Notes under the pieces: model-generated
What the model was told of the DNA's origin: nothing
The model's input: the letters and a program-made list of their open reading frames with translations, nothing else
The model's database searches: none
Made by a program: the position numbers and the translations under genes
Assembly: GCA_963575645.1 (NCBI GenBank)
Contig: OY754466.1
Span: 34,132,001-34,196,000, forward strand
Source of the DNA: Xanthostigma xanthostigma
Taxonomy: Eukaryota; Arthropoda; Insecta; Raphidioptera; Raphidiidae
DNA length: 64,000 bases
Direction of reading: 5' to 3'
Shown here: one piece after another, positions 4,422 through 61,937 of the stretch
Numbering within the stretch: the first letter of the stretch is position 1
How the letters are laid out: the number at the start of each line of letters is the position of its first letter

Positions 4422-5318
4422 ACAGGGTGGGCTGAAAAGTTCGCAGGCTGACCCATAGATGGCGCTACTAGTATCAAATCCATATGATTTTTAGTTAGCC
4501 CTAACCTTCAAAAGACGCGTGTATAAATTTGACAGCTGTTGCACTATTAGTATCTGAGTTATAGCATTTTTTGTGAAAGAGCTTTCGTTACTTTGAAAAA
4601 ATGGATAAAAGGAATTTCGTGTGTTAATAAAGCATTGCTTTTTGGTGAAAAAAAATACTGTTGAAACTAAGGCTTGGCTTGATAAACATTATTCGGACTT
4701 TGCACCAGGAAAATCAACCGTAGAAAAGCGGTTTGCTAAATTTAAACGAGGCGAAATGAGCACCGAGGACGATGCACGCAGTGAACGCCCCAAAGAGGCT
4801 GTTATCGACGAAAACATCAAAAAAGTTCACAAAATAATTTTTGATAACCATAAAGTGAAGTTGATTGAGATAGCTGAGACCCTAAAGATATCAAAGGAAC
4901 CTGTTGGTCATATCGTGAATGAATATTTGGATATGCGAAAGCTCTGTACAAAGTGGATGCCGCGCGAGCTCACAATCGACCAAAAACAACAACAAATCGA
5001 TGATTCTAAGCAGTGTTTGGAGCTGTTCAATCGTAATAAATCCGAATTTTTGCGTCCATATGTGACGATGGATGAAACATGGCTCCATCATTTCACACCG
5101 CTGGACAGAAATTTCGCGCCGATGAAGAGGTAATCGCCGAAACTGAAGCCTATTTTGAGGCTAAAGACAAATCGTATTATAAAAATGGTATCGAAAAATT
5201 GTATGACCGCTATAATCGTTGTATCGCCCTCGAAGGGAACTATATTAAATAATAAACTCAAATTCTATAAAAAAAATTTTTATTCTATGCTAGCCTACAA
5301 ACTTTTCAGCCCGCCTGT
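4422..5318 (+). mobile_element. Internally deleted mariner (irritans type)
   Basis: The element starts acagggtgggctgaaaagtt (4422) and ends, inverted, acttttcagcccgcctgt (5318), with TA at 5319-5320. The left TA is displaced by one base. Its length of 897 bp compares with about 1.3 kb for full-length mariners, the shortfall matching the missing part of the transposase gene. It cannot encode its own transposase but keeps both ends. Confidence 0.92.
4601..5252 (+). pseudogene. Mariner transposase, deleted and frameshifted
   Basis: Mariner transposase (cut-and-paste DDE/D enzyme) of the irritans subfamily, recognised from TVETKAWLDKHYSDFAPGKS, FKRGEMSTEDD, YLDMRKLCTKWMPRELT and VTMDETWLHH. The likely ATG is at 4601, but a missing base in the A-run shifts the frame after two or three codons; it reopens at 4616-4621. 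The reading then covers the N-terminal DNA-binding region and the first catalytic Asp (in MDETW) to about 5100. There it jumps, in another frame, into AGQKFRADEEVIAETEAYF and on to IALEGNY and a stop at 5250. About 130 residues carrying the second and third catalytic Asp are therefore deleted. Not functional. Confidence 0.92.
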
Positions 5319-5672: not shown

Positions 5673-6582
5673 TAGAGGACGGTGACAGGAGCACTTGGTG
5701 GGAGAAATTCTCTCTTCGTGTGGCCTGAGTCCCCCTCAACAAATCCGCTTAATGGCAAAATTCAAAATTCCTCTTCAGAAAATGACTGCAAGGCATCTGG
5801 GAGGACTTCCTGATATCAGAAACAATGTTATCTACAAATTTACTCCCTGCAGAGACTTTCAAAGTCCTTTCAAAAAATCGAAAAAACCGTCAAAAAAATG
5901 CATTTGAAGTTGAAACTTGACGGAATGGTTGATTGGGTGGCTCGGAATACGAGAAAAAAATTTCATGGCTCTAAATGACCTCACTTCCTTTCGATGATTC
6001 TTCAAAACTTGCACAGGCAAAAATTCGAAAAGTCTTCGCTCGGTGGCAGAAAATCTTGCCAGGCTCTCTATTAGTACCTATTAGAAAAAAATATTATCTG
6101 CCAATTTTGTCACTGCTTGATCATAATCTGCCAATTTAATGTACTTGTCATTAATGCTTTACCTGAATACCATGTTAAACTTTACGCAAACATGACGCGT
6201 TTTTGCAAGGTCGATTTTGGCGGAAAACTGTACCTCAGGATTGTCTACAAGAAGATGAACCGTTTGAGCTCAATTTCACTCAACGAGCTATTTTTTTTAT
6301 TTTTATTTTTTTTTGTATTTATTTATTACACTGATAGTCTCTGCAGGGAGTAAATTGGCAGAAAATATTTTTTCTACAATTAGGAGAACCCCCCAGATGC
6401 CTTTCAGTCATTTTCTGCCATTTAGTAGAGCAATTTTGAATTTTGCCGATTTTTTTAAGTGCCCCAGCGTTGTATCGCTACGCACTGGACCCCTACTCCA
6501 CTAAGCGGATTTGTAAAGGGTGACTCAGACTACGGGAAAGAGAGAATTTTCTGCCATCAAGTGCTCCTTGACCGTCTCTTTA
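5673..6582. mobile_element. Foldback element, copy 1
   Basis: Inverted arms of roughly 200-250 bp at each end share 'gacggt-a-aggagcacttg-tgg-agaaa' and 'ttactccctgcagaga' blocks. The middle (about 5900-6080) contains 'ggctctctattagtacc' and 'cctcacttcctttcgatgattcttc', which appear in reverse complement in the second copy at 23130-24082. So the two copies share both arms and unique core and lie in opposite orientation. Short open frames in the arms are unsupported. Superfamily unknown. Confidence 0.75.
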
Positions 6583-9537: not shown

Positions 9538-9551
9538 TCACTTTTTAGTTT

Positions 9552-10030
9552 GAGGATCTATAAAAGAATTTATTAATCCTGGGGGTCCTAATAAGGATAA
9601 TGGGAAACTGTTATCAAATTATTGCATTGTCATCGGTCCTTGATACGTATGCAAAGTTTCAAATTAATCTGAGGATCTATAAAAGAATTTATTAATCCTG
9701 GGGGTCCTAATAAGGATAATGGGAAACTGTTATCAAATTATTGCATTGTCATCGGTCCTTGATACGTATGCAAAGTTTCAAATTAATCAGACTTCGGGAA
9801 ATTGGTGAAAATAAAGCGTTTACTACAGAGGATCTATAAAAGAATTTATTAATCCTGGGGGTCCTAATAAGGATAATGGGAAACTGTTATCAAATTATTG
9901 CATTGTCATCGGTCCTTGATACGTATGCAAAGTTTCAAATTAATCAGACTTCGGGAAATTGGTGAAAATTATGCTCAAAGATTCCGTTACGGAGTTAGTT
10001 ACATACATACATATTTACAACCCAAACTAA
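9552..10030 (+). repeat. Triplicated ~120-157 bp repeat
   Basis: The block 'gaggatctataaaag' to 'gcaaagtttcaaattaatc' starts at 9552, 9671 and 9828. Copies 2 and 3 continue with 'agacttcgggaaattggtga'; copies 1 and 2 stop short at different points, as expected from successive tandem duplication. The three copies look nearly identical, so the duplication is recent. The final unit runs on into 'attccgttacggagttagtt' and a cata microsatellite, which resembles tails of insect retroelements, but the family is not identified. Confidence 0.85.
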
Positions 10031-22206: not shown

Positions 22207-23129
22207 AGAGTGCAAAGATAAAATGTAAAAAAATATTTTCGTATTACGTGCATTGAAAGTGATGTTTCATAGATCCTTGTTTCCGAAGACGAAAGTTGAC
22301 AATTGCATCCCAGACATACTTGATTGGGACTCAACAATAACAAATTCGGTTTTTTTTGGGGTCACTCAAATGTGCATCGATTAATTGACCTGTGATAGCG
22401 GTAAAGACTGATTATTTTATTCATTTTTTTTTATTAAAAATTGTTGTTAAGATCTATGTTTTTCTTTAAAATAAGTCTAAACTTTTAGTTGTTGAACAAT
22501 TGAGAATTTGTATTAAAATTATGATTATAACACATTCTTTTTTTTAATTGCATCTTAATATTTGTGTTATTATCATGTAAATAATGGTACTGGCTCAACA
22601 TGTTTCAAACTTTGACTTTCCTGGTTCATGCTGAATAAGTGTGCGCGGTCTTTAAAACATTATGCTTCTTAAAAAAAATTACACATACATCACTGTCGCA
22701 AAAATAAATAGAAATAACAAATTTCAGTAGTGCAAGGCATTAAAGTGTATCAAGCCATATACTAAAATTAAAATATCTTACTAAAGCGCTGTAATAAAAA
22801 TCAAAAAAATTAGAAGAAACAATTTTAACGAATTGTTGACATGCCACCAAGTGACATATATATTTTTAAACCCTAGGATAATAATTATATTCTATAAATT
22901 ATAGGGAGATAACCAACTATGATTGGTTAGTACTAAAACATTATGTTGAATAACATTATTGACAAGAAAGGACAAAGCTTTCCTTAATTTCCATTCAATT
23001 AAGGTTAAGATTTCATATTGGAATTTATGTAAACTCAGTTGGCCTTTGTGATTAAACTCTATATTGATTTTAAAGCAGGTCTAGTTTAGAAGTTAGAACA
23101 CCCTTCACAGTTTGTAATATTGAATTATA
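22207..23129. other. Unassigned AT-rich stretch
   Basis: No supported feature seen. Confidence 0.5.
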
Positions 23130-24082
23130 AGTAGGAGGATGGCGATAGAAATGGTCAAGGAACACTGGGTGGCAGAAACGCTCTCTTTCGTGTAGTCTGA
23201 GCCGGCCCCCTCTACAAATCCGCTTGGTGGAGTAGGGGTCTAGCGCGTTCCGGTACGCCGCTGAAGTGCCTAAAAATACGAAAAAGTCCTCTACGAAATG
23301 ACTGAACAGCATTTGGGGGACCTCCTAGTTGTAGGAAAAATATTTTCTGCCAATTTACCCCCTGCAGAGACTCTCAGTATAATAGATAAATAAATTTGAA
23401 AAAAACGCTCGGTAAGTGAAACCGAGCTCAAACAAGTCGTCTTCTTGTAGATAATCCCAAGGTACAGTTTTCTGCCAAAATCTACCTTGCAAAAAAGCGT
23501 CATGTTCGTGGAAAGTTTAGTTTTTCAGGTAAAGCAAGTACAAGTACATTAAATTGGTACGTTGTGATTTAGCAGTGACAAAATGGTTAGATAATATTTT
23601 TGGCAAACTATCTGGGTACTAATAGAGAGCCTGGTAAGAGTTTTTACCACCGCGCGAGTACTTTGTGAATTTTTGCGTGTGCAAATTTTGAAGAATCATC
23701 GAAAGGAAATGAGGTCACTGGGAGTCACGAAAATTTTTCTCGTATTCCGGGCCACTGAATCAAACAATCCGTCAAGTTTCAACTTAAACTTCAATTAAAA
23801 TTTTTTTTTGTTATTTTTGAAAGGATTTTGAAAGTTTCTGCAGGAGGTAAATTGGCAGAAAATATTTTTCCTGCAACTAGGAGGCTCCCCAGATGCTGTT
23901 CAGTTATCATCTACCATTTCGTAGAAGACTTTTGAATTTGCCGTTTTTTAAGCGCCTCAGCGGAATATCGCAACGCACTGGACCCCTACTCCACCAAACG
24001 GATATGCTCAGACTATACGAAAGAGAGCGTTTCTGCCACTCAGTGTTCCTTGACCATTTCTGTCGTCCTCACGCTACCTACT
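23130..24082. mobile_element. Foldback element, copy 2 (inverted relative to copy 1)
   Basis: Terminal arms begin 'agtagg' on each strand and share 'acagaaatggtcaaggaaca' style tips, 'gtggagtaggggtc' and 'taccccctgcagagactctc'. The core (23600-23790) is the reverse complement of 5900-6080 in copy 1. The arms pair over roughly 250 bp with moderate divergence. No protein is recognisable. Confidence 0.75.
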
Positions 24083-24412
24083 AGACCAGAGTTTTCTAAT
24101 CTGGAATATGTAAGTCCGAGATGGGTCGCGGATTCATTCCTGGTATAAGTGGGCAAAACAATGACGGCCGAACTGTACATAAAAACGTCGCCCGGAAAGC
24201 GGTGATGTATTTTTTTACTGCACACCACTGAAGTAAAACTAGCAGAAAATCTATTATAAATTGACATTAATTCCCAAAAAATAATATATTATGATTTGTT
24301 TTTTAAAGTCATGGTATCGTTGAAGTTTTTCACTCTACTGTGCGTAAAAAATTGGGTCTGCGACAACTTCATTAATTTATAAAGGGTCCTTAGACGAAAA
24401 GTTTAGGGAACG
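24083..24412. mobile_element. Possible hAT-type MITE
   Basis: The left end 'ccagagttttctaatctgg' and the right end 'aaaagtttagggaacgctg' form a partial inverted repeat resembling the 'caga/cgttccctaaactttt' termini of some hAT elements. 'gatgggtcgcggattca' and 'acaccactgaagtaaaacta' inside fit that type. No matching 8-bp duplication is visible, so the ends may have drifted. Confidence 0.4.
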
Positions 24413-24946
24413 CTGTTGCGGAGGAAATAAAATTTAGTGACTTTTTAGTCTGTTGCACTTCTGTACACATAATAATATTATATAATTTATAGCATAACGC
24501 ATTATTCAATGCGCGTATGGGTTTAAAATAATGAAAATATGAAATATTAAACGAGCAGTCGGTCATAAAAGGGTGTATTACACTCTGTTAATTACTCCAG
24601 AACATAAATTTGTTTATAATAAAAGATATTATAAAATATTATATTTGTTCATCAGGAGGACTTTCATAATAATTTAGTTTCAGTTCTTATTAGTGCAGTC
24701 AAATAAGCTAAAAAAAGGGACAACCTCGGAATGAAACGGAATAAGCTGAATATTTGTATAAATCCTTATTATGGAATTCTAAATGTTGTCTCAAAAGTCT
24801 CATAAGCTCACGTGTGAGCGTCCTTAAATATTCAAGCTCAAAGGTTGCGAAAATCACTTTTTGGCAAATATCTCGCTTCCTTTGCCTCAAATCGTATTTA
24901 TATTTCTTATAAAAGTTGTAGAGTATAAAATTCTCTACAAATATAG

Positions 24947-25523
24947 TGTAACAAAACAGTTAAATACACAAATAAGCGTACTTCTCAAACGAAACAGTAA
25001 TAATAACGTTAACAGAAACAAAACTATTTGTTCCAAATAATAAAATAGAAGACTTAGTAATAGAAGAATATAATGTCACTCATTATGTACAAAAAATATT
25101 TACAATACAGGAACACACCAAAGTTTATCTAATACACTTATTCGCACTTGTCTATTAACTATATTCAAACGATTATTTACAACAAGTTATTTATGTAAAA
25201 CCACATTTATAAGATTGCACTCAATGATCTACACAGCTCATTTATCTTCTATCTTAGCAGTTATCTCGGTCTTGCTGTGCCGAGTAAACAATTTATGTCA
25301 CATAGCTATTTGTAATCCACTGTACGTACGCGCTGCGACTAACTGATTGACTTGTCAACGACTCCGCTCGCATTTTATAGTTTCGTCCCCCGCCTGGTCG
25401 AATTTTCTAGAAGCCTTCTTCAGGCAATTTTATGAAGGTCGGGTTTTGAATACCTGCTTCCATTGTCGTTGTTGCGAGAATATTCCACAGAAAGCATAGT
25501 CGTCCCAACAGGAGCGCGCAACA
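24947..25523 (-). mobile_element. Solo LTR with 4-bp target duplication
   Basis: Read on the minus strand, the segment starts TGTTGCGCGCTCCTGTTGGG and ends TTTTGTTACA, the TG...CA form of LTR retrotransposons. It is flanked on both sides by the same four bases (ATAG on the plus strand, 24943-24946 and 25524-25527). No second LTR or gag/pol remains, so it fits a solo LTR left by recombination. A 4-bp duplication suggests the Ty3/Gypsy group. It carries promoter motifs, described separately. Confidence 0.75.
25340..25412 (-). promoter_or_regulatory. LTR core promoter with heat-shock-element-like array
   Basis: On the minus strand there is TATAAAA (25379-25373). An arthropod-type initiator TCAGTT lies at 25345-25340, 35 bases downstream when measured to its A, and TCAATC puts its A 31 bases downstream. 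Upstream at 25400-25412 are three alternating blocks GAA-nn-TTC-nn-GAA with exact 5-base spacing, the heat-shock-factor site pattern. A further GAATATTC lies at 25478-25485. Motifs are directly visible; heat-responsive use is inference. Confidence 0.5.
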
Positions 25524-26109
25524 ATAGTTTTAAACAATTTTTTATACGTTTAACTGTTTTAAAATATTTTCTTAATTTCTTTCCTACTTAAAATACAATT
25601 ATTCTTAATAAGAATATTACTAAAATATATTTGAAGTAAATTCACTTAATTACCTCATTATTTATATGAAAAAGGTAAGTAATATTAAATGACTACCTAT
25701 TTGATTTATATATAATATTTTCAATATAATGTATGAAATAGTTAATTAACTAATATTTAATGAATAATTAAGTTAAAAAGCCGTACTATGGACTAGGATT
25801 CGGGATTGACCTTGCGCTATGGCATGTATGGCTGAGCGCTCTATCTCAAAAACGGTTAAACGTATAAAAAATTGTTTAAGTCAAAATTTGTAGAGAATTG
25901 TATAGTCTACAACTTTTATAATAAATACAAATACGATTGGAGGCAAAAGAAGCGAGATATGAACAAAAAGTGATTTTCGCGACCTTTAACCTTGAATAAA
26001 TAAGGACGCTCACGCGTAATTTTATGAAACTTTTGAGACAACATTTAGAATGCCAATTTAAAAGTTTATACAAATGTTCAGCTTATTCCGTTTTATTCCA
26101 AGGTGAAAC

Positions 26110-27478
26110 TCTAAAGTGACTGAACTATATAGGTATTTCTAAATTTTAAGGCTAAGAACTGCCATGCAACGATACGAAATCAAGACTAAGTGCTGTGAAT
26201 TACAGTACGCATTGTCAAAATATCTAGTTTGACAATGACCTTAGACTGTAACCACTCATATATTTCTTCATAAGAAAAGCATTGTAAGAATTTTAAATCG
26301 ATCTTGATCTAAATGCAATTTTTTTCGATGTATACTCAAGATCTATCATTTGTTTTTCTGTGAGTAGTACATTAGACATGATACACAAACCACTATTTTC
26401 ATACCGCCCAATAAAATAGCAGTAAAATGCCTGTACGAAACATTTAGCACTAGGCCTGTAGAGCCACGTAAAGTGAAATAACTCGTATTACCATTTTCAT
26501 AGAAAAACGAAAAAAAAATCATGAGCAATTTTTCCGTGCGTGAATAAAAAATAAAATAAAACCTTAACCGTATCTAAAAAACGGAAAATTTTCTTTTCGA
26601 TGTGTACATCGACGGAAAAATAGTGGCTGAAATTTGGGTCGCGTCATTTTTCCGCAATATGACGTCAAAAATGTCAATAAGTGGACAAAAAATTTCAAAG
26701 ATGGTAAAAAATTGGTTAAAATTTAAAAGCATTTCTGCCGCTTCGTTTTTTAGGTTCTGTTAGAGCCAAATAATTGGGAAATACCAGCGGCAGAAATTTT
26801 TGACCAATTGCACCCTCCCCAAGCCACTCCTAAGAGAGTGGATTTATGAATTGGTCAAATGATCTGAGGTGGCTTATTCATAATCCACTGCCTTGAATTA
26901 AAATAAAACTGAAAATATGAAATTATGCTAGGCGTCCAAAATATAACAGTGACTGTTGGCGGCCTTAAAAAAATATAAATTCTCCAAAGTGATCAAAGAG
27001 AAGAGTCGTAGTATTAACATTACGTATTTCGCAATGATAAATGAATGCGCGGTATGGATTACCGACGGAGGTGTCATGTAATAAAGTTAGGTGAGGTGCG
27101 CTTTACTGTAAGCACTTGCTTATGTGCTTACCTGAACGGAATATTAAACTCGATGATGCCAACAACTTGCGCACACAGAACCACTTATAAGCCCGTTTCT
27201 TGCAGTAACCTTTCCACTTCAATAAGAGATCCAACAAAAACTAGAATGCTCAAGCATAACGCAGTTCAGCGGTCCTAAAAGATTACACATATTCAAGCCC
27301 GTTTAACCGAGAAGCTTTTTAAATAGTACTTAATTTTGTATTGTAAGTGTCAGGAAATTTTAATCATGACCAGAAAAGAACAATAAAATAGGTTAAACGT
27401 TTTTTTGATTCATGTTATGACAACAGGCGATAAGTCCGGTTGACGCACGATTGTCACTGATGTGTTCACTGACATTTT
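26110..27478. other. Repeat fragments and unassigned DNA
   Basis: About 26215-26400 holds a diverged relative of the 3840-4060 repeat. At 26707-26810 'aattggttaaaattt-aa-a-catttctgccgct' and 'agcggcagaaatttttgaccaatt' form an imperfect inverted repeat. The frame at 27045-27278 (plus) has no recognisable domain and is not called as a gene. Confidence 0.45.
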
Positions 27479-30034: not shown

Positions 30035-30059
30035 AATGCAGTTTAGAAAAGATGTATTT

Positions 30060-30622
30060 GAAATCTTAAAAAAAAAACTTCGGAGAAGTAAAAACTTCGT
30101 TCTGTGCTAAATTCAAAAACTTGAGGCGACTGAATCTTAAGATTATAACTTAAAAAAAAAGAATTTCGAGGCAGACAAGAAATTGAAATCAAGCTCGAAA
30201 TTCTGTGCGTAAGATGTCGAAAAAAAATGAATTTCGAGGCAGACAAGGAATTGAAATCCAACCTTGAAATTCTGTGCTTATAAAAGCTACAAGAGCAACA
30301 GCAAAAAAAATGCAAAGACGGTGTTCGCATAACTCCTTTAGTTATCACTAAAAAAACGCCGTCTGTGCACTTTTTTTTGCTGTTGCTCTTGTAGCTTTTA
30401 TAAGCGCAGAATTTCGAAGTTGGATTTCAATTCCTTATCTGCCTCAAAATTCATTTTTTTTTCGACGTCTTAGGCACAGAATTTTGAGCTTGATTTCAAT
30501 TTCTTGTCTGCCTCGAAATTCTTTTTTTTTAAGTTATAATCTTAAGATTCAGTCGCCTCAAGTTTTTGAATTTAGCACAGAACGAAGTTTTTACTTCTCC
30601 GAAGTTTTTTTTTTAAGATTTC
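30060..30622. mobile_element. 563-bp highly symmetrical foldback
   Basis: Arms of about 265 bp (30060-30323 and 30357-30622) are nearly perfect inverted copies around a 33-bp centre. Each arm also contains two related internal units, 'tttcgaggcagacaagaaat' and 'tttcgaggcagacaaggaat'. Because of the symmetry, minus-strand and plus-strand frames encode the same peptide (SLISISCLPRNSFFLSYNLK and onward), which is a structural by-product. High arm identity suggests a young element or one homogenised by gene conversion. Confidence 0.92.
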
Positions 30623-30835
30623 ACGTCTTTTTCCAAAGTGTGAGACATTATTTTTATTTTTCCTCCAAAATAAACATATGTGCATTTTTTATATTGTTGT
30701 ATTTAAATGCAATAAAAGTGTTCATATTGTTGTATTTAAATGCAATGAATCTCCGAAATTAGAATATGTATTGTAAAAAACAACACGATCCTTACTCCAT
30801 GCAACTGTGGTTTCGAGCGCGTCTCTCATGTATTT

Positions 30836-43733: not shown

Positions 43734-45193
43734 TTACACATCATTAAAATTAAATGAAAAATATTCGTCAAGTGAGTATATCGTATTCCTAAGCAGTAGT
43801 GTTATTATTTTATTTTTGAATACTTTTAAACTTTTAATTTCTCTAATACACTTAGGAAGATGGTTAAAACATTTTATGGCAACAATTTGCTGATTTTTAG
43901 CTGATAAGTTCAATCTGTGCTTAGGTATATTTAAGTATGTATTTCTGCGATTATCGTCAAAATTATATAAGTTGTTTTTTTTTTTTTACATATAATAAAA
44001 GATTCATAATATATAAAGAGACTGCAGTCAATATGTTTAAATTTTTAAATAATATTCTGCAACTGTGTCTACGATCCTTAAAAGACATAGTTCTTATAAC
44101 TCTTTTTTGACTAATTAAAACATCATTTATTCGGCTAGAGTTGCCCCAACAGAACAAGCCATATGTAATGACAGACTGTATATACGAGAAATAATACATT
44201 TTTAAGATCTGTGCATTGACTTTGTCCCTCAGTTGCCAGATGACGAAATTTCTAGACGAGATTTTATTTATAACAATATCAATTTGTTCATACCAATTAA
44301 GCCGGTCATCTACATTTATCCCTAGAAATTTGACAACTGATTTTTGTACAATACTTGATTTGTTGGCACGACAAAGTAAACTTTGACTATTTATATTTCT
44401 ACTGGAAAATAACATTAATTCCGTTTTATCATAATTAAGTTTAAGTTGGTTTATTGAGCAATAATTAATCATATCTTTTACACAGTTAGTTGCACTATCA
44501 CTCACACCACTTATATTGATGTCCGTGACAACTGCAGATACATCGTCTGCAAACAGAGTTAACGAAGCATTGTTTACGTTACTGAAAATGTCATTAACAA
44601 ATAATATGAGAGGAAGAGGACCTAGCACACTGCCTTGGGGCACCCCTGTTTTAATTGTATGCACACTTGATTCATATACACAGTTTTCATGCTTCATTTT
44701 GACCATCTGAAGACGTCCAGTCAAATAAGATTCCAGCCATTTATTAGCAATTCGTCTCATTTCATAATTATTTAACTTATGTAATAATAATTCATGATTA
44801 ACCATATCAAATGCGCGACTTAAATCGAAAAAAATACCTGCGACTTTTTTTTTTGCTCCAAACACTTTATTACATTATTGATTAGGGATAAAACTGCATC
44901 TTCAGTTGATGATTTTTCAACAAAACCATATTGATTCTGTGATAATAAGTCATGTTTTTTAATAAACGACCATAATCTGGACTGATACACTTTTCCGTAC
45001 ACTTTAGAGAATACGGATAATAACGAAATTGGACGATAGTTCGATAATAGAGCCGGATCATTTTTTTGTACACTGGACATACAACTGATGTCTTCAATTT
45101 CGTTCGGAATATGCCATCTTGCATTGACTGATTTATTAAAAATGTTAGTGGTTGTGCTATATGTTTAGATACTCTCTTCAGTAAAGAGCACGG
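43734..45193 (-). pseudogene. CR1-like LINE ORF2, frameshifted
   Basis: Minus-strand reverse transcriptase fragment in at least four frame segments. In order: QPLTFLINQSMQDGIFRTKL to PVYKK; NDPALLSNYRPISLLSVFSK and FVEKSSTEDAVLSLINNVIK (45080-44820); then FFDLSRAFDMVNHELLLHKL (palm motif A), GVPQGSVLGP (motif B), LFADD (motif C), VVKFLGINVDDRLNWYEQI, YGLFCWGNSSRINDVLISQK. After the T-run at 43975 it continues with NIPKHRLNLSAKNQQIVAIK to a stop at 43734. The 3' side ends in a TAA-type microsatellite (43648-43668). No endonuclease or RNase H part. Frameshifts fall at homopolymer runs. Confidence 0.9.
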
Positions 45194-59713: not shown

Positions 59714-61937
59714 TGATAGATAGATAGATACATAGATAGATACATTTATTGTTCATAATAGCTATACAGCAGGAGTTCGTCATAAATTTCTTAATTAAAA
59801 TTAATTTAAAAAAATTCTTGTACTGAATATAGACAAGCTTTAATTAAAAATGATTTAAGCTCCCTTTTAAATTTAAGAAAAGGTAAATTCTTCAGTTCTA
59901 TAGGAAGGCAGTTATAGAAATTTAGGGCAGAGTATTCGGGGCTATTTTGATAAAGACTAAGATTTGGTTTCGGAAGAATAATTGAGTTCTTATTACGCGT
60001 TTGGTAGCTATGTATTGTACTGTGAGTTGGATATTTAGTAACAAATTTCTGCAAATGACATAGAGAGTGATAAATGTAAATAGATGGAACTGTTAATATT
60101 TGATTTGCCTTAAAACAATTTTTACAACTGTCACGAAAGCCTAGATTGAAAACAATTCTTATAGCTTTTTTCTGCATTAAAAATACTCTATGGAGATCGG
60201 ATGCACTGCTACCCCAAAACATGATTCCGTATTTAACATGCTGATAGAAGTATGCATAATAAGTTGTGAGGCAAAGATTCGAGTCGTGACAGGTGTAATG
60301 AATTTTTCTCAGAGCGAATAGAGATTTAGAAAGTTTGGAACATAAGTTTGAAACATGATTGGTCCATTGTAGCGTGTCAGAAATGGTTACACCGAGAAAT
60401 TTAAAAGTGGATGTTTTTTCAAGTAATGTATTATTGGACATTAGTGACAAATGAGAAGCTGTTTTATTACGATTAGTGTGGAAAACCATGTATTGCGTTT
60501 TATTCGCATTAAGGCAGAGGGAGTTGTCAATACACCAGGCGGAGAATTGATCAAGAACAAGCTGAGTTTTTTGCTGTAATTCGGAAAGAGAATTCGCAGA
60601 AGTAATGAAACATGTATCGTCTGCATACATGATAATACGGTCACAGGATACGCAAGATGGTAGATCATTAACATAAAGAATAAAGAGTAGTGGACCTAAA
60701 ACGGAACCTTGAGGTACACCTAATTTAACCGGTCTGGAGCTTGATAAAGCATCAGCAACACGAACACATTGCTCGCGATCATCAAGGTAAGATGCAATCC
60801 AAGATAACGCTTTGCCACGAAAACCTAGATGTTGAATTTTAGTTAGTAAACGGTTATGATCGACAGTATCAAAAGCTTTACTTAGATCGCAATATATTGC
60901 AGATACATACATCTTGTCATTAAGACCAGTGGATGCATGTTGTATGAGTTCATGAATACCATCCTCAGTACACTTTCCTTCACAAAAACCAAATTGAGCA
61001 GGACAAATGATATTATATTTATGCAGATAAGAATTTATTCTGTTGCAGAAGGCAAGTTCAAAAAGTTTGGAAAAAATGGGAAGTATAGAGATAGGCCGAT
61101 AGTTGGCAATGTCACATTTATCACCTTTTTTAAAAAGTGGAATAGTCTTCCCTACTTTAAGAGCAGACGGAAAGGTACCTGTAGAGAAAGACAGATTAAT
61201 GAGATGTATAAGGGGTTTTATTAATTGCTTACAATTCTTAATAAGTGTATTAGGTAGCTCATCTACTCCACACGTTAAGTCATTTTTCAATTTATTCAGT
61301 AGCTCTATTGTTTCAACTTCAGAAATCGGTGTCAAATATATTGAATCATTGAGAGAAGTAACCGGGTTATAATTAGTGTTTGCAGATGGTAATTTCAGTT
61401 CATTAGGTATATTTAAGAAAAAGATATTAAAGATATCAGCTATTTTAGCATTATCAGTCACTAAGGTGCCGTTAAATGAAATTGGTTGCTGAAGATTCTT
61501 TCTATCGCTATTATTTCCTTTTAACTCTGAGTTGACAATAGACCAAATGACCTTACTTTTATTGTCTGATTTAATGATTTTCTTGTTGTAGTAATCTGAT
61601 TTAGCGAATTTTAAAGCTTGTTTATATTCAGTCTTTAAAACAGAAAAAACATTACAAAAATGGTTATCATGTTTACTGAGTATATTAATATTGTCAAGGA
61701 AACATTTAAAATCTAATAAATATTTAGTAATCCACGGTTTGACATATTTTTTATTCTTATGAGAAACCTTTTTTAAAGGAAAGGCACATTTAAAATAATG
61801 TAAAAAAGTTTGATGGAAATTATTAAACGACTTGTTGAGGTTGTAACAAAATAAAATGTCCTCCCATAGTTCACTACTAATTAAAAATGAGAAGTAATTT
61901 TTATTGAAATCACTGTATTGTCTGCTTTATCAGAAGC
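59714..61937 (-). mobile_element. 5'-truncated CR1-like LINE with GATA-type tail
   Basis: On the minus strand the LINE enters at about 61937 within the pre-RT region of ORF2 and ends in a TATC/GATA microsatellite (59714-59745). It lies wholly inside a Helitron-like unit. The endonuclease and ORF1 are absent, the usual outcome of incomplete target-primed reverse transcription. Confidence 0.85.
59806..61926 (-). CDS. Non-LTR reverse transcriptase (partial, open for 706 codons)
   Basis: RNA-templated DNA polymerase of a LINE, which copies element RNA at a nicked chromosome. The frame is open from the codon after a TAA at 61929-61927 to a stop at 59806. Approximate positions: a pre-RT region with KPWITKYLLD at 1-155, IPLFKKGDKCDIANYRPISI near 261, YCDLSKAFDTVDHNRLL (motif A) near 345, GVPQGSVLGPLLFILYVNDL (motif B) near 403, IIMYADDTCF (motif C, catalytic Asp pair) near 433, FKFLGVTISDTLQWTNHV near 508. 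It ends FKRELKSFLIKACLYSVQEF with no RNase H. All core catalytic residues are present and no frameshift is visible, unlike the other LINE copies here, so it inserted recently. No start codon or endonuclease; 5' truncated. Confidence 0.9.
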   Translation of the reverse strand, partial: SRQYSDFNKNYFSFLISSELWEDILFCYNLNKSFNNFHQTFLHYFKCAFPLKKVSHKNKKYVKPWITKYLLDFKCFLDNINILSKHDNHFCNVFSVLKTEYKQALKFAKSDYYNKKIIKSDNKSKVIWSIVNSELKGNNSDRKNLQQPISFNGTLVTDNAKIADIFNIFFLNIPNELKLPSANTNYNPVTSLNDSIYLTPISEVETIELLNKLKNDLTCGVDELPNTLIKNCKQLIKPLIHLINLSFSTGTFPSALKVGKTIPLFKKGDKCDIANYRPISILPIFSKLFELAFCNRINSYLHKYNIICPAQFGFCEGKCTEDGIHELIQHASTGLNDKMYVSAIYCDLSKAFDTVDHNRLLTKIQHLGFRGKALSWIASYLDDREQCVRVADALSSSRPVKLGVPQGSVLGPLLFILYVNDLPSCVSCDRIIMYADDTCFITSANSLSELQQKTQLVLDQFSAWCIDNSLCLNANKTQYMVFHTNRNKTASHLSLMSNNTLLEKTSTFKFLGVTISDTLQWTNHVSNLCSKLSKSLFALRKIHYTCHDSNLCLTTYYAYFYQHVKYGIMFWGSSASDLHRVFLMQKKAIRIVFNLGFRDSCKNCFKANQILTVPSIYIYHSLCHLQKFVTKYPTHSTIHSYQTRNKNSIILPKPNLSLYQNSPEYSALNFYNCLPIELKNLPFLKFKRELKSFLIKACLYSVQEFF

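What the first reader, a model, noticed from the sequence alone, without database searches (positions are those of the whole stretch)
24943..25527. Solo LTR with promoter, initiator and heat-shock-like sites inside a foldback arm
Seen: TGTTG...TTACA (minus strand) bounded by identical ATAG tetramers, inserted exactly where the foldback's other arm is continuous. Within it are TATAAAA, TCAGTT at initiator distance and GAAnnTTCnnGAA about 20 bp upstream of the TATA box. Known: heat-shock factor binds alternating GAA/TTC pentamers, and some LTR elements are heat-responsive. Inference: the LTR could make the flanking inverted repeat transcribable under stress and so a double-stranded RNA source.
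Basis: partly seen in the sequence, partly recalled or inferred. Interest (0 to 1): 0.72.

Follow-up and report, generated by a model that had tools for sequence, protein, structure and literature searches.

The report
Old solo LTR with heat-shock promoter
A worn copy of a jumping element's control region, carrying a heat-shock switch also found in related copies, sits inside another mobile DNA element and could drive RNA outward, but it cannot make that element's two halves into double-stranded RNA as first proposed.

Summary
Window 24947-25523 (minus strand) is a 577-bp solo LTR flanked by identical ATAG, inserted in one arm of a dispersed foldback element (about 24690-26128). The genome holds many copies with 4-bp duplications and at least 20 LTR-plus-primer-binding-site junctions, so this is an LTR retroelement family. 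The heat-shock element (TTCTAGAAAATTC) is ancestral: intact in 23 of 37 aligned copies, the rate expected of neutral decay. Genome-wide its TTCTAGAA core precedes 257 of 400 promoter anchors. A sister LTR family, near random similarity across this part of U3, keeps the core at the same distance from TATA but takes its third unit from the other side, suggesting selection while the elements were active. The dsRNA idea fails as written: the promoter reads only one arm, and that RNA folds like shuffles. This copy has lost its family's AATAAA. With a 3.2-kb minus-strand stretch free of poly(A) signals, a transcript could run through a second, complete foldback 1.3 kb downstream; this is inference from a pattern seen after the fact. 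No expression data were available; heat induction is untested.

The parts
24947..25523 (-). solo LTR, 577 bp (the 37 aligned relatives are 647-681 bp), TG...CA ends
24943..24946 (.). target-site duplication ATAG (3' side of LTR)
25524..25527 (.). target-site duplication ATAG (5' side of LTR)
25400..25412 (-). three-unit heat-shock element TTCTAGAAAATTC
25373..25379 (-). TATA box TATAAAA
25341..25350 (-). initiator region: TCAATC at the family start position (A at 25348), overlapping TCAGTT (A at 25344)
24690..26128 (.). dispersed foldback element split by the LTR; left arm about 24723-24942 plus 25528-25560, loop about 25561-25848, right arm about 25849-26104; TA at both ends
23143..24065. second foldback (arms 23143-23376 and 23829-24065, longer) lying downstream of the LTR promoter
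22548..25761 (-). 3213-bp stretch whose minus strand holds no AATAAA or ATTAAA between its two end sites

Best explanation
It is an old solo LTR, left by LTR-LTR recombination, of an LTR retrotransposon family that inserted into one copy of a dispersed TA-bounded foldback transposon. The family's U3 promoter was built as HSE - 20 bp - TATA - 29 bp - initiator, with AATAAA about 41 bp before the LTR end and a primer-binding site (Leu type by recall) one base after it. HSF binding at the HSE most likely raised transcription of the element under stress (inferred). This copy keeps the HSE and TATA, has a damaged family initiator, and lost its poly(A) signal by a roughly 55-bp deletion between near-identical direct repeats. 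If it is still active it would be an unterminated minus-strand promoter reading through the left arm and onward. Shown: identity, insertion, motif ancestry, loss of AATAAA. Inferred: HSF response, any present transcription.
For: Forty scored genome places for each of two LTR queries, each count including the query itself. Exact 4-bp TSDs in 12 of 20 copies examined, 3 more with one mismatch; 7 of a further 20; 2 of 2 more. LTR end followed by T or C and TGGTGTCAGGTGTG or a near variant in 20 of 100 listed places of 145 (the reversed pattern gave 21 chance places in all). HSE intact in 23 of 37 aligned copies other than the window. TTCTAGAA 7-10 bp before the 17-base promoter anchor in 257 genome places against 400 anchors, reversed-pattern controls 0. 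Sister LTR family: three-unit HSE GAAGATTCTAGAA in 6 of 7 copies. In a fixed register to TATA the TTCTAGAA core is 78% identical between families (35 of 38 copies and 7 of 7 could be anchored) against 28% in the 25-bp spacer and 35% upstream; a block this good came up in 2 of 2000 column permutations. AATAAA near the LTR end in all 37 aligned copies, absent here.
Against: No pol or gag sequence was read and no LTR pair was found, so the superfamily is unknown. HSE decay within the family equals neutral expectation (23 copies keep all nine bases; mean 22.2 for 405 comparable non-CpG templates, 232 of which do at least as well), so nothing shows that solo copies are kept for this site. The 37 copies were picked by similarity to the window or to L012. 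Three more copies were left out of the alignment because the script found no LTR end: of these L013 and L020 have the HSE and a late AATAAA, L019_9195 has neither, and L020 lacks TATAAAA. With the window's exact 5-bp HSE-anchor spacing only 53 of 400 anchors match, most listed core matches having 4 bp; the window copy itself has a mismatch in the anchor. The one PBS junction fetched has a truncated, rearranged LTR. No RNA or HSF-binding data.
Confidence: 0.8

Rival explanations
1. Inert fossil: an ordinary decayed solo LTR whose HSE, TATA and initiator are leftovers with no present activity and no heat response now.
For: Neutral-rate loss of the HSE across copies and 92.5% identity to the family column majority; mutated family initiator and several deletions.
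Against: HSE and TATA are both intact here. The sister family shows constraint on the HSE core while the elements were active, though that says nothing of this copy today.
Confidence: 0.65
2. One reading: heat-driven transcription from the LTR makes the surrounding foldback a dsRNA source.
For: Promoter and inverted repeat are both real; an RNA spanning both arms would pair strongly (-484 kcal/mol, no shuffles available at that length).
Against: The promoter reads only the left arm outward; the right arm is upstream of it. The predicted RNA folds like shuffles (z -1.1). Divergent transcripts would be same-sense.
Confidence: 0.03
3. The whole unit is not an LTR but a short non-autonomous element that moves as it is.
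For: More than half of the 20 copies read with flanks are single units with their own TSDs, as are the two same-strand neighbours tested; no LTR pair was found.
Against: Recurrent LTR-PBS junctions, and the order U3-TATA-Inr-AATAAA near the end with TG...CA.
Confidence: 0.07

Closest known systems
ONSEN/COPIA78 and other heat-responsive Brassicaceae COPIA LTRs (PMC5059998, abstract and outline seen)
   Same: HSF-type elements inside the LTR; gain, loss and duplication of such elements between families
   Different: Plant Copia elements whose heat-responsiveness was measured; here an animal-type genome, undetermined superfamily, copies read so far mostly solo LTRs, no expression data
Caenorhabditis Helitrons carrying HSEs (PMC6927752, abstract and outline seen)
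   Same: Transposons spreading HSEs through an animal genome
   Different: [quoted passage not shown] here LTRs with their own core promoter and no binding data
Drosophila copia, gypsy, Tirant and springer LTRs with predicted stress-factor sites (PMC10745035, passages seen)
   Same: Insect LTRs with predicted HSF sites (copia and gypsy in its Table 5)
   Different: Those two listed sites do not hold a TTCnnGAAnnTTC array; here a perfect array recurs across copies and two families
Hairpin-RNA / endo-siRNA loci of Drosophila (PMC5392987, PMC10292708; search listing and abstract starts only)
   Same: Inverted-repeat (hairpin) loci give siRNAs
   Different: No transcript or small RNA known here; the LTR's own foldback cannot be read whole by its promoter

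Membership tests
LTR retrotransposon (solo LTR) | TG...CA ends with short target-site duplications | tested here: met
   Window ATAG/ATAG; 12 of 20 other copies exact, 3 with one mismatch
LTR retrotransposon (solo LTR) | Primer-binding site just after the LTR in some copies | tested here: met
   TGGTGTCAGGTGTG or a near variant one base after the LTR end in 20 of 100 listed places; tRNA-Leu assignment is recalled
LTR retrotransposon (solo LTR) | Paired LTRs around gag-pol | tested here: inconclusive
Ty3/Gypsy superfamily | Gypsy-type reverse transcriptase and domain order | not tested
   No pol sequence read; the 4-bp TSD is only compatible with it
Heat-responsive LTR element (ONSEN-like in function) | Three-unit HSE in U3 conserved among copies | tested here: met
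   23 of 37 aligned copies; 87 of the first 100 listed core matches have all three units, counted by eye
Heat-responsive LTR element (ONSEN-like in function) | Transcript induced by heat through HSF | not testable with these tools
   No RNA-seq, CAGE or ChIP data
Tc1/mariner-like foldback or MITE (host of the insertion) | TA target duplication and inverted termini | tested here: inconclusive
   Left end TAGTGCAGTCA in 4 of 6 aligned copies and one mismatch in a fifth; right end TGACTGGACTA in 2 of 6, near variants in 3; no transposase source examined

The most novel reading that the evidence does not exclude
The solo LTR has become a heat-inducible promoter without a terminator, driving a roughly 2.9-kb minus-strand RNA from about 25348 to the first poly(A) signals near 22548-22435. 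That RNA would hold both arms of the second foldback (23143-24065) in cis and give a stress-induced hairpin RNA and siRNAs. The loss of the LTR's AATAAA and the absence of poly(A) signals along the path would be signs of selection for that transcript.
Probability: 0.05. Interest if true: 0.75.

Novelty: new member of a known kind. Interest (0 to 1): 0.42.

Why it matters
It adds an apparently insect genome in which an LTR family spread more than two hundred TATA-linked heat-shock cores. It gives a case where two LTR variants keep a two-unit HSF core in place while swapping the side of the third unit, which bears directly on how HSF sites turn over in retroelements. It also corrects the geometry of the proposed dsRNA mechanism and points to a different inverted repeat that such a promoter could read whole.

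Tried and rejected
PPT search before the LTR start: 5 places, 1 in the reversed control, no recurrent tract. The best one (L031) has upstream sequence that matched nothing else, so it was rejected as a PPT, but it exposed the sister LTR family. TGGC-type PBS: 18 places, 1 in the control, no recurrent sequence, rejected. The NNTGG pattern gave 2 places, both with only partial LTR tails. Rfam and tRNA scans found nothing; a sigma-70-style scan found 8 sites against 7.7 in shuffles. Pfam found RVT_1 in 2 of 6 window ORFs, which I take as LINE-like and unrelated to the LTR. Selection on solo copies for the HSE was rejected. Five hits starting near LTR position 110-122 were checked as a possible third U3 type: they are truncated or deleted copies, HSE intact in 4 of 5. 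A same-strand neighbour pair in the list (contig C3, 4066 bp apart) was tested as an LTR pair: each LTR has its own ATAT duplication, so two solos. Wider same-strand neighbours were not tested. Paper searches showed no insect LTR with a canonical three-unit HSE in the titles and abstract starts listed; one search listed 25 of 59 papers and one search listed 12 of 31, and only that library was searched.

Full report
The LTR itself. Window 24947-25523, read on the minus strand, starts TGTTGCGCGC and ends TTTTGTTACA and is bounded by ATAG on both sides. It lies in the left arm of an inverted repeat. Without the LTR and one ATAG the arms align at 226 of 252 positions with no gap at the insertion point. 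No second copy is in the window.

The host foldback is itself a dispersed element. A search with its right part found 40 scored places of 451 candidates, the window included, and about 30 of the 40 show an opposite-strand arm alongside by my count of the rows. Five fetched paralogues align from about window 24690 to about 26128 and across the LTR site; 3 of 5 keep the same length there, 2 have gaps there. Among the six aligned copies the left end reads TAGTGCAGTCA in 4 (one mismatch in a fifth) and the right end TGACTGGACTA in 2 (near variants in 3), so the element is TA-bounded. Its superfamily was not tested.

The LTR family. The window's own assembly (623 Mb, 28 contigs) gave 40 scored places for the window LTR (3181 first-look candidates) and 40 for copy L012 (4542 candidates), the query included each time. 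Copies end with ...AGAACAGTTTTGTTACA or close to it, followed by a 4-bp duplication, often ATAT, ATAC or GTAT. Of 20 copies read with flanks, 12 have exact duplications (9 by script, 3 by eye), 3 differ by one base, and the other 5 differ more or lack an end. Among 20 further copies 7 are exact by script, 8 could not be scored on one or both sides, and 5 differ. The 37 aligned copies are 647-681 bp.

Pairs. No hit pair lies on one strand at a spacing that suits an LTR pair. L010 holds two same-strand copies 1.4 kb apart, each with its own duplication. The one search list shows two same-strand cores 4066 bp apart on contig C3; their four LTR ends were read, and each LTR has its own ATAT duplication and no primer-binding site after it, so they are two solo LTRs.

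The primer-binding site settles the class. Among places with the LTR tail followed within 8 bases by TGG and a non-C, 20 of the 100 listed (145 in all; 21 for the reversed pattern) read TGGTGTCAGGTGTG or a near variant, one base (T or C) after the LTR end. In the one fetched (L070) the match continues TGGTGTCAGGTGTGGGGTGTGAAC, which looks like the complement of a tRNA-Leu 3' end; that assignment is recalled, not from a call. In L070 only the last 62 bp of the LTR are present, so it is not an intact element.

What this copy has lost. AATAAA lies near the LTR end in all 37 aligned copies: 41 bp from the end found by script in 33, 39 or 35 in 4 whose end was cut or mutated. Of three copies left out of the alignment, L013 and L020 have it and L019_9195 does not. 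The window copy has none: about 55 bp are gone between the near-identical repeats AACTGTTTTGTTA and AACAGTTTTGTTA. It also lacks about 28 bp just before the HSE and a few bases at the initiator.

The heat-shock element. TTCTAGAAAATTC ends 20 bp before TATAAAA. Shuffled LTRs had a three-unit HSE in 27 of 5000 cases and never had HSE, TATA and initiator in order. Of 37 aligned copies other than the window, 23 keep all nine fixed bases and 35 keep TATAAAA. Comparable non-CpG nine-base templates are kept by 22.2 copies on average (232 of 405 templates do at least as well), so the motif is ancestral and decays neutrally. These copies were chosen by similarity to the window or to L012. Genome-wide, the 17-base promoter anchor occurs 400 times; the window copy is not among them, having one mismatch. 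The three-unit HSE at the window's own spacing precedes 53 of the 400, and TTCTAGAA at 7-10 bp precedes 257. Of the first 100 of those listed, 87 have the third unit, by my count. Reversed-pattern controls were 0 in all three searches.

The sister family. A near relative shares the first ~75 bp of U3 (55-65 identities over 64-74 aligned bp) and the start of R (38-51 over 45-54) with this family, in comparisons of 5 sister and 2 family copies. Its U3 between is unlike: TATA-anchored identity is 28% in the 25-bp spacer and 35% upstream. Yet TTCTAGAA sits at the same place, -33 to -26 from TATA, at 78% identity; a block as good came up in 2 of 2000 column permutations (35 of 38 family copies and 7 of 7 sister copies anchored). 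In 6 of 7 sister copies the third unit lies upstream (GAAGATTCTAGAA), in the window family downstream (TTCTAGAAnnTTC). The sister copies are L031 and six of the best of 40 scored hits to it (866 candidates). Two families therefore keep a three-unit HSF site by different third units. I read this as selection for HSF binding while the elements were active (inference).

Geometry of the dsRNA idea. Transcription from about 25348 on the minus strand runs toward lower coordinates, through R-U5 and the left arm only; the right arm (25849-26104) is upstream. One RNA cannot hold both arms, and RNAs leaving in both directions would carry them in the same sense. The RNA 25346-24600 folds no better than shuffles (z -1.1, 2 of 20 shuffles as good). 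By contrast a second foldback downstream (arms 23143-23376 and 23829-24065) folds at z -34, 0 of 20 shuffles as good. The minus strand has no AATAAA or ATTAAA between the sites at 25761 and 22548, the longest such gap on either strand of the window (3213 bp; next 1740). Shuffles of this stretch average 9.1 such sites, with a minimum of 2 in 1000, against 1 here (the boundary site); the plus strand has 13. AATAAA is the only absent one of 20 hexamers expected eight or more times, and one of two absent among 84 expected four or more times. This was noticed after the fact and has no independent test; an intron or a transcript unrelated to the LTR would explain it as well.

Verdict. A new HSE-bearing LTR family in an apparently insect genome (my judgement from LINE and mariner-like ORFs; no call names the host), represented here by a damaged solo copy. 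Ordinary as a solo LTR, of moderate interest for HSF-site turnover, and not a dsRNA source for its own foldback.

Noticed in passing
window 22548-25761, minus strand: Longest stretch of the window without AATAAA or ATTAAA on one strand (3213 bp, next longest 1740); AATAAA is the only absent hexamer of 20 expected at least 8 times.
   Followed up: partly
window 23128-24080: A second foldback with long arms, very stable when folded (z -34), about 76% similar to window 5758-6579 over part of its length.
   Followed up: partly
L059-L064, and L031 from 874 downward (minus): Sister LTR family with the same U3 start and R region but a different middle U3; GAAGATTCTAGAA in 6 of 7 and TATAAATA in 6 of 7 copies.
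   Followed up: yes
L070 1-551: An LTR tail with primer-binding site next to what looks like an inverted partial copy of the same tail, so a rearranged locus.
   Followed up: no
window 30059-30623: Nested inverted repeat: 169-nt arms 98% complementary plus 91-nt arms 95% complementary.
   Followed up: no
window 9551-9969: Tandem repeat units of 119 and 157 bp at 100% match, hence probably recent.
   Followed up: no
window 59806-61926 and 43963-44874 (minus): Reverse transcriptase ORFs (RVT_1) that look LINE-like, the first open for 706 codons.
   Followed up: no
window 4609-5133 (+): 174-codon open frame that looks like a mariner transposase fragment (recalled likeness; no Pfam match at 0.001).
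   Followed up: no
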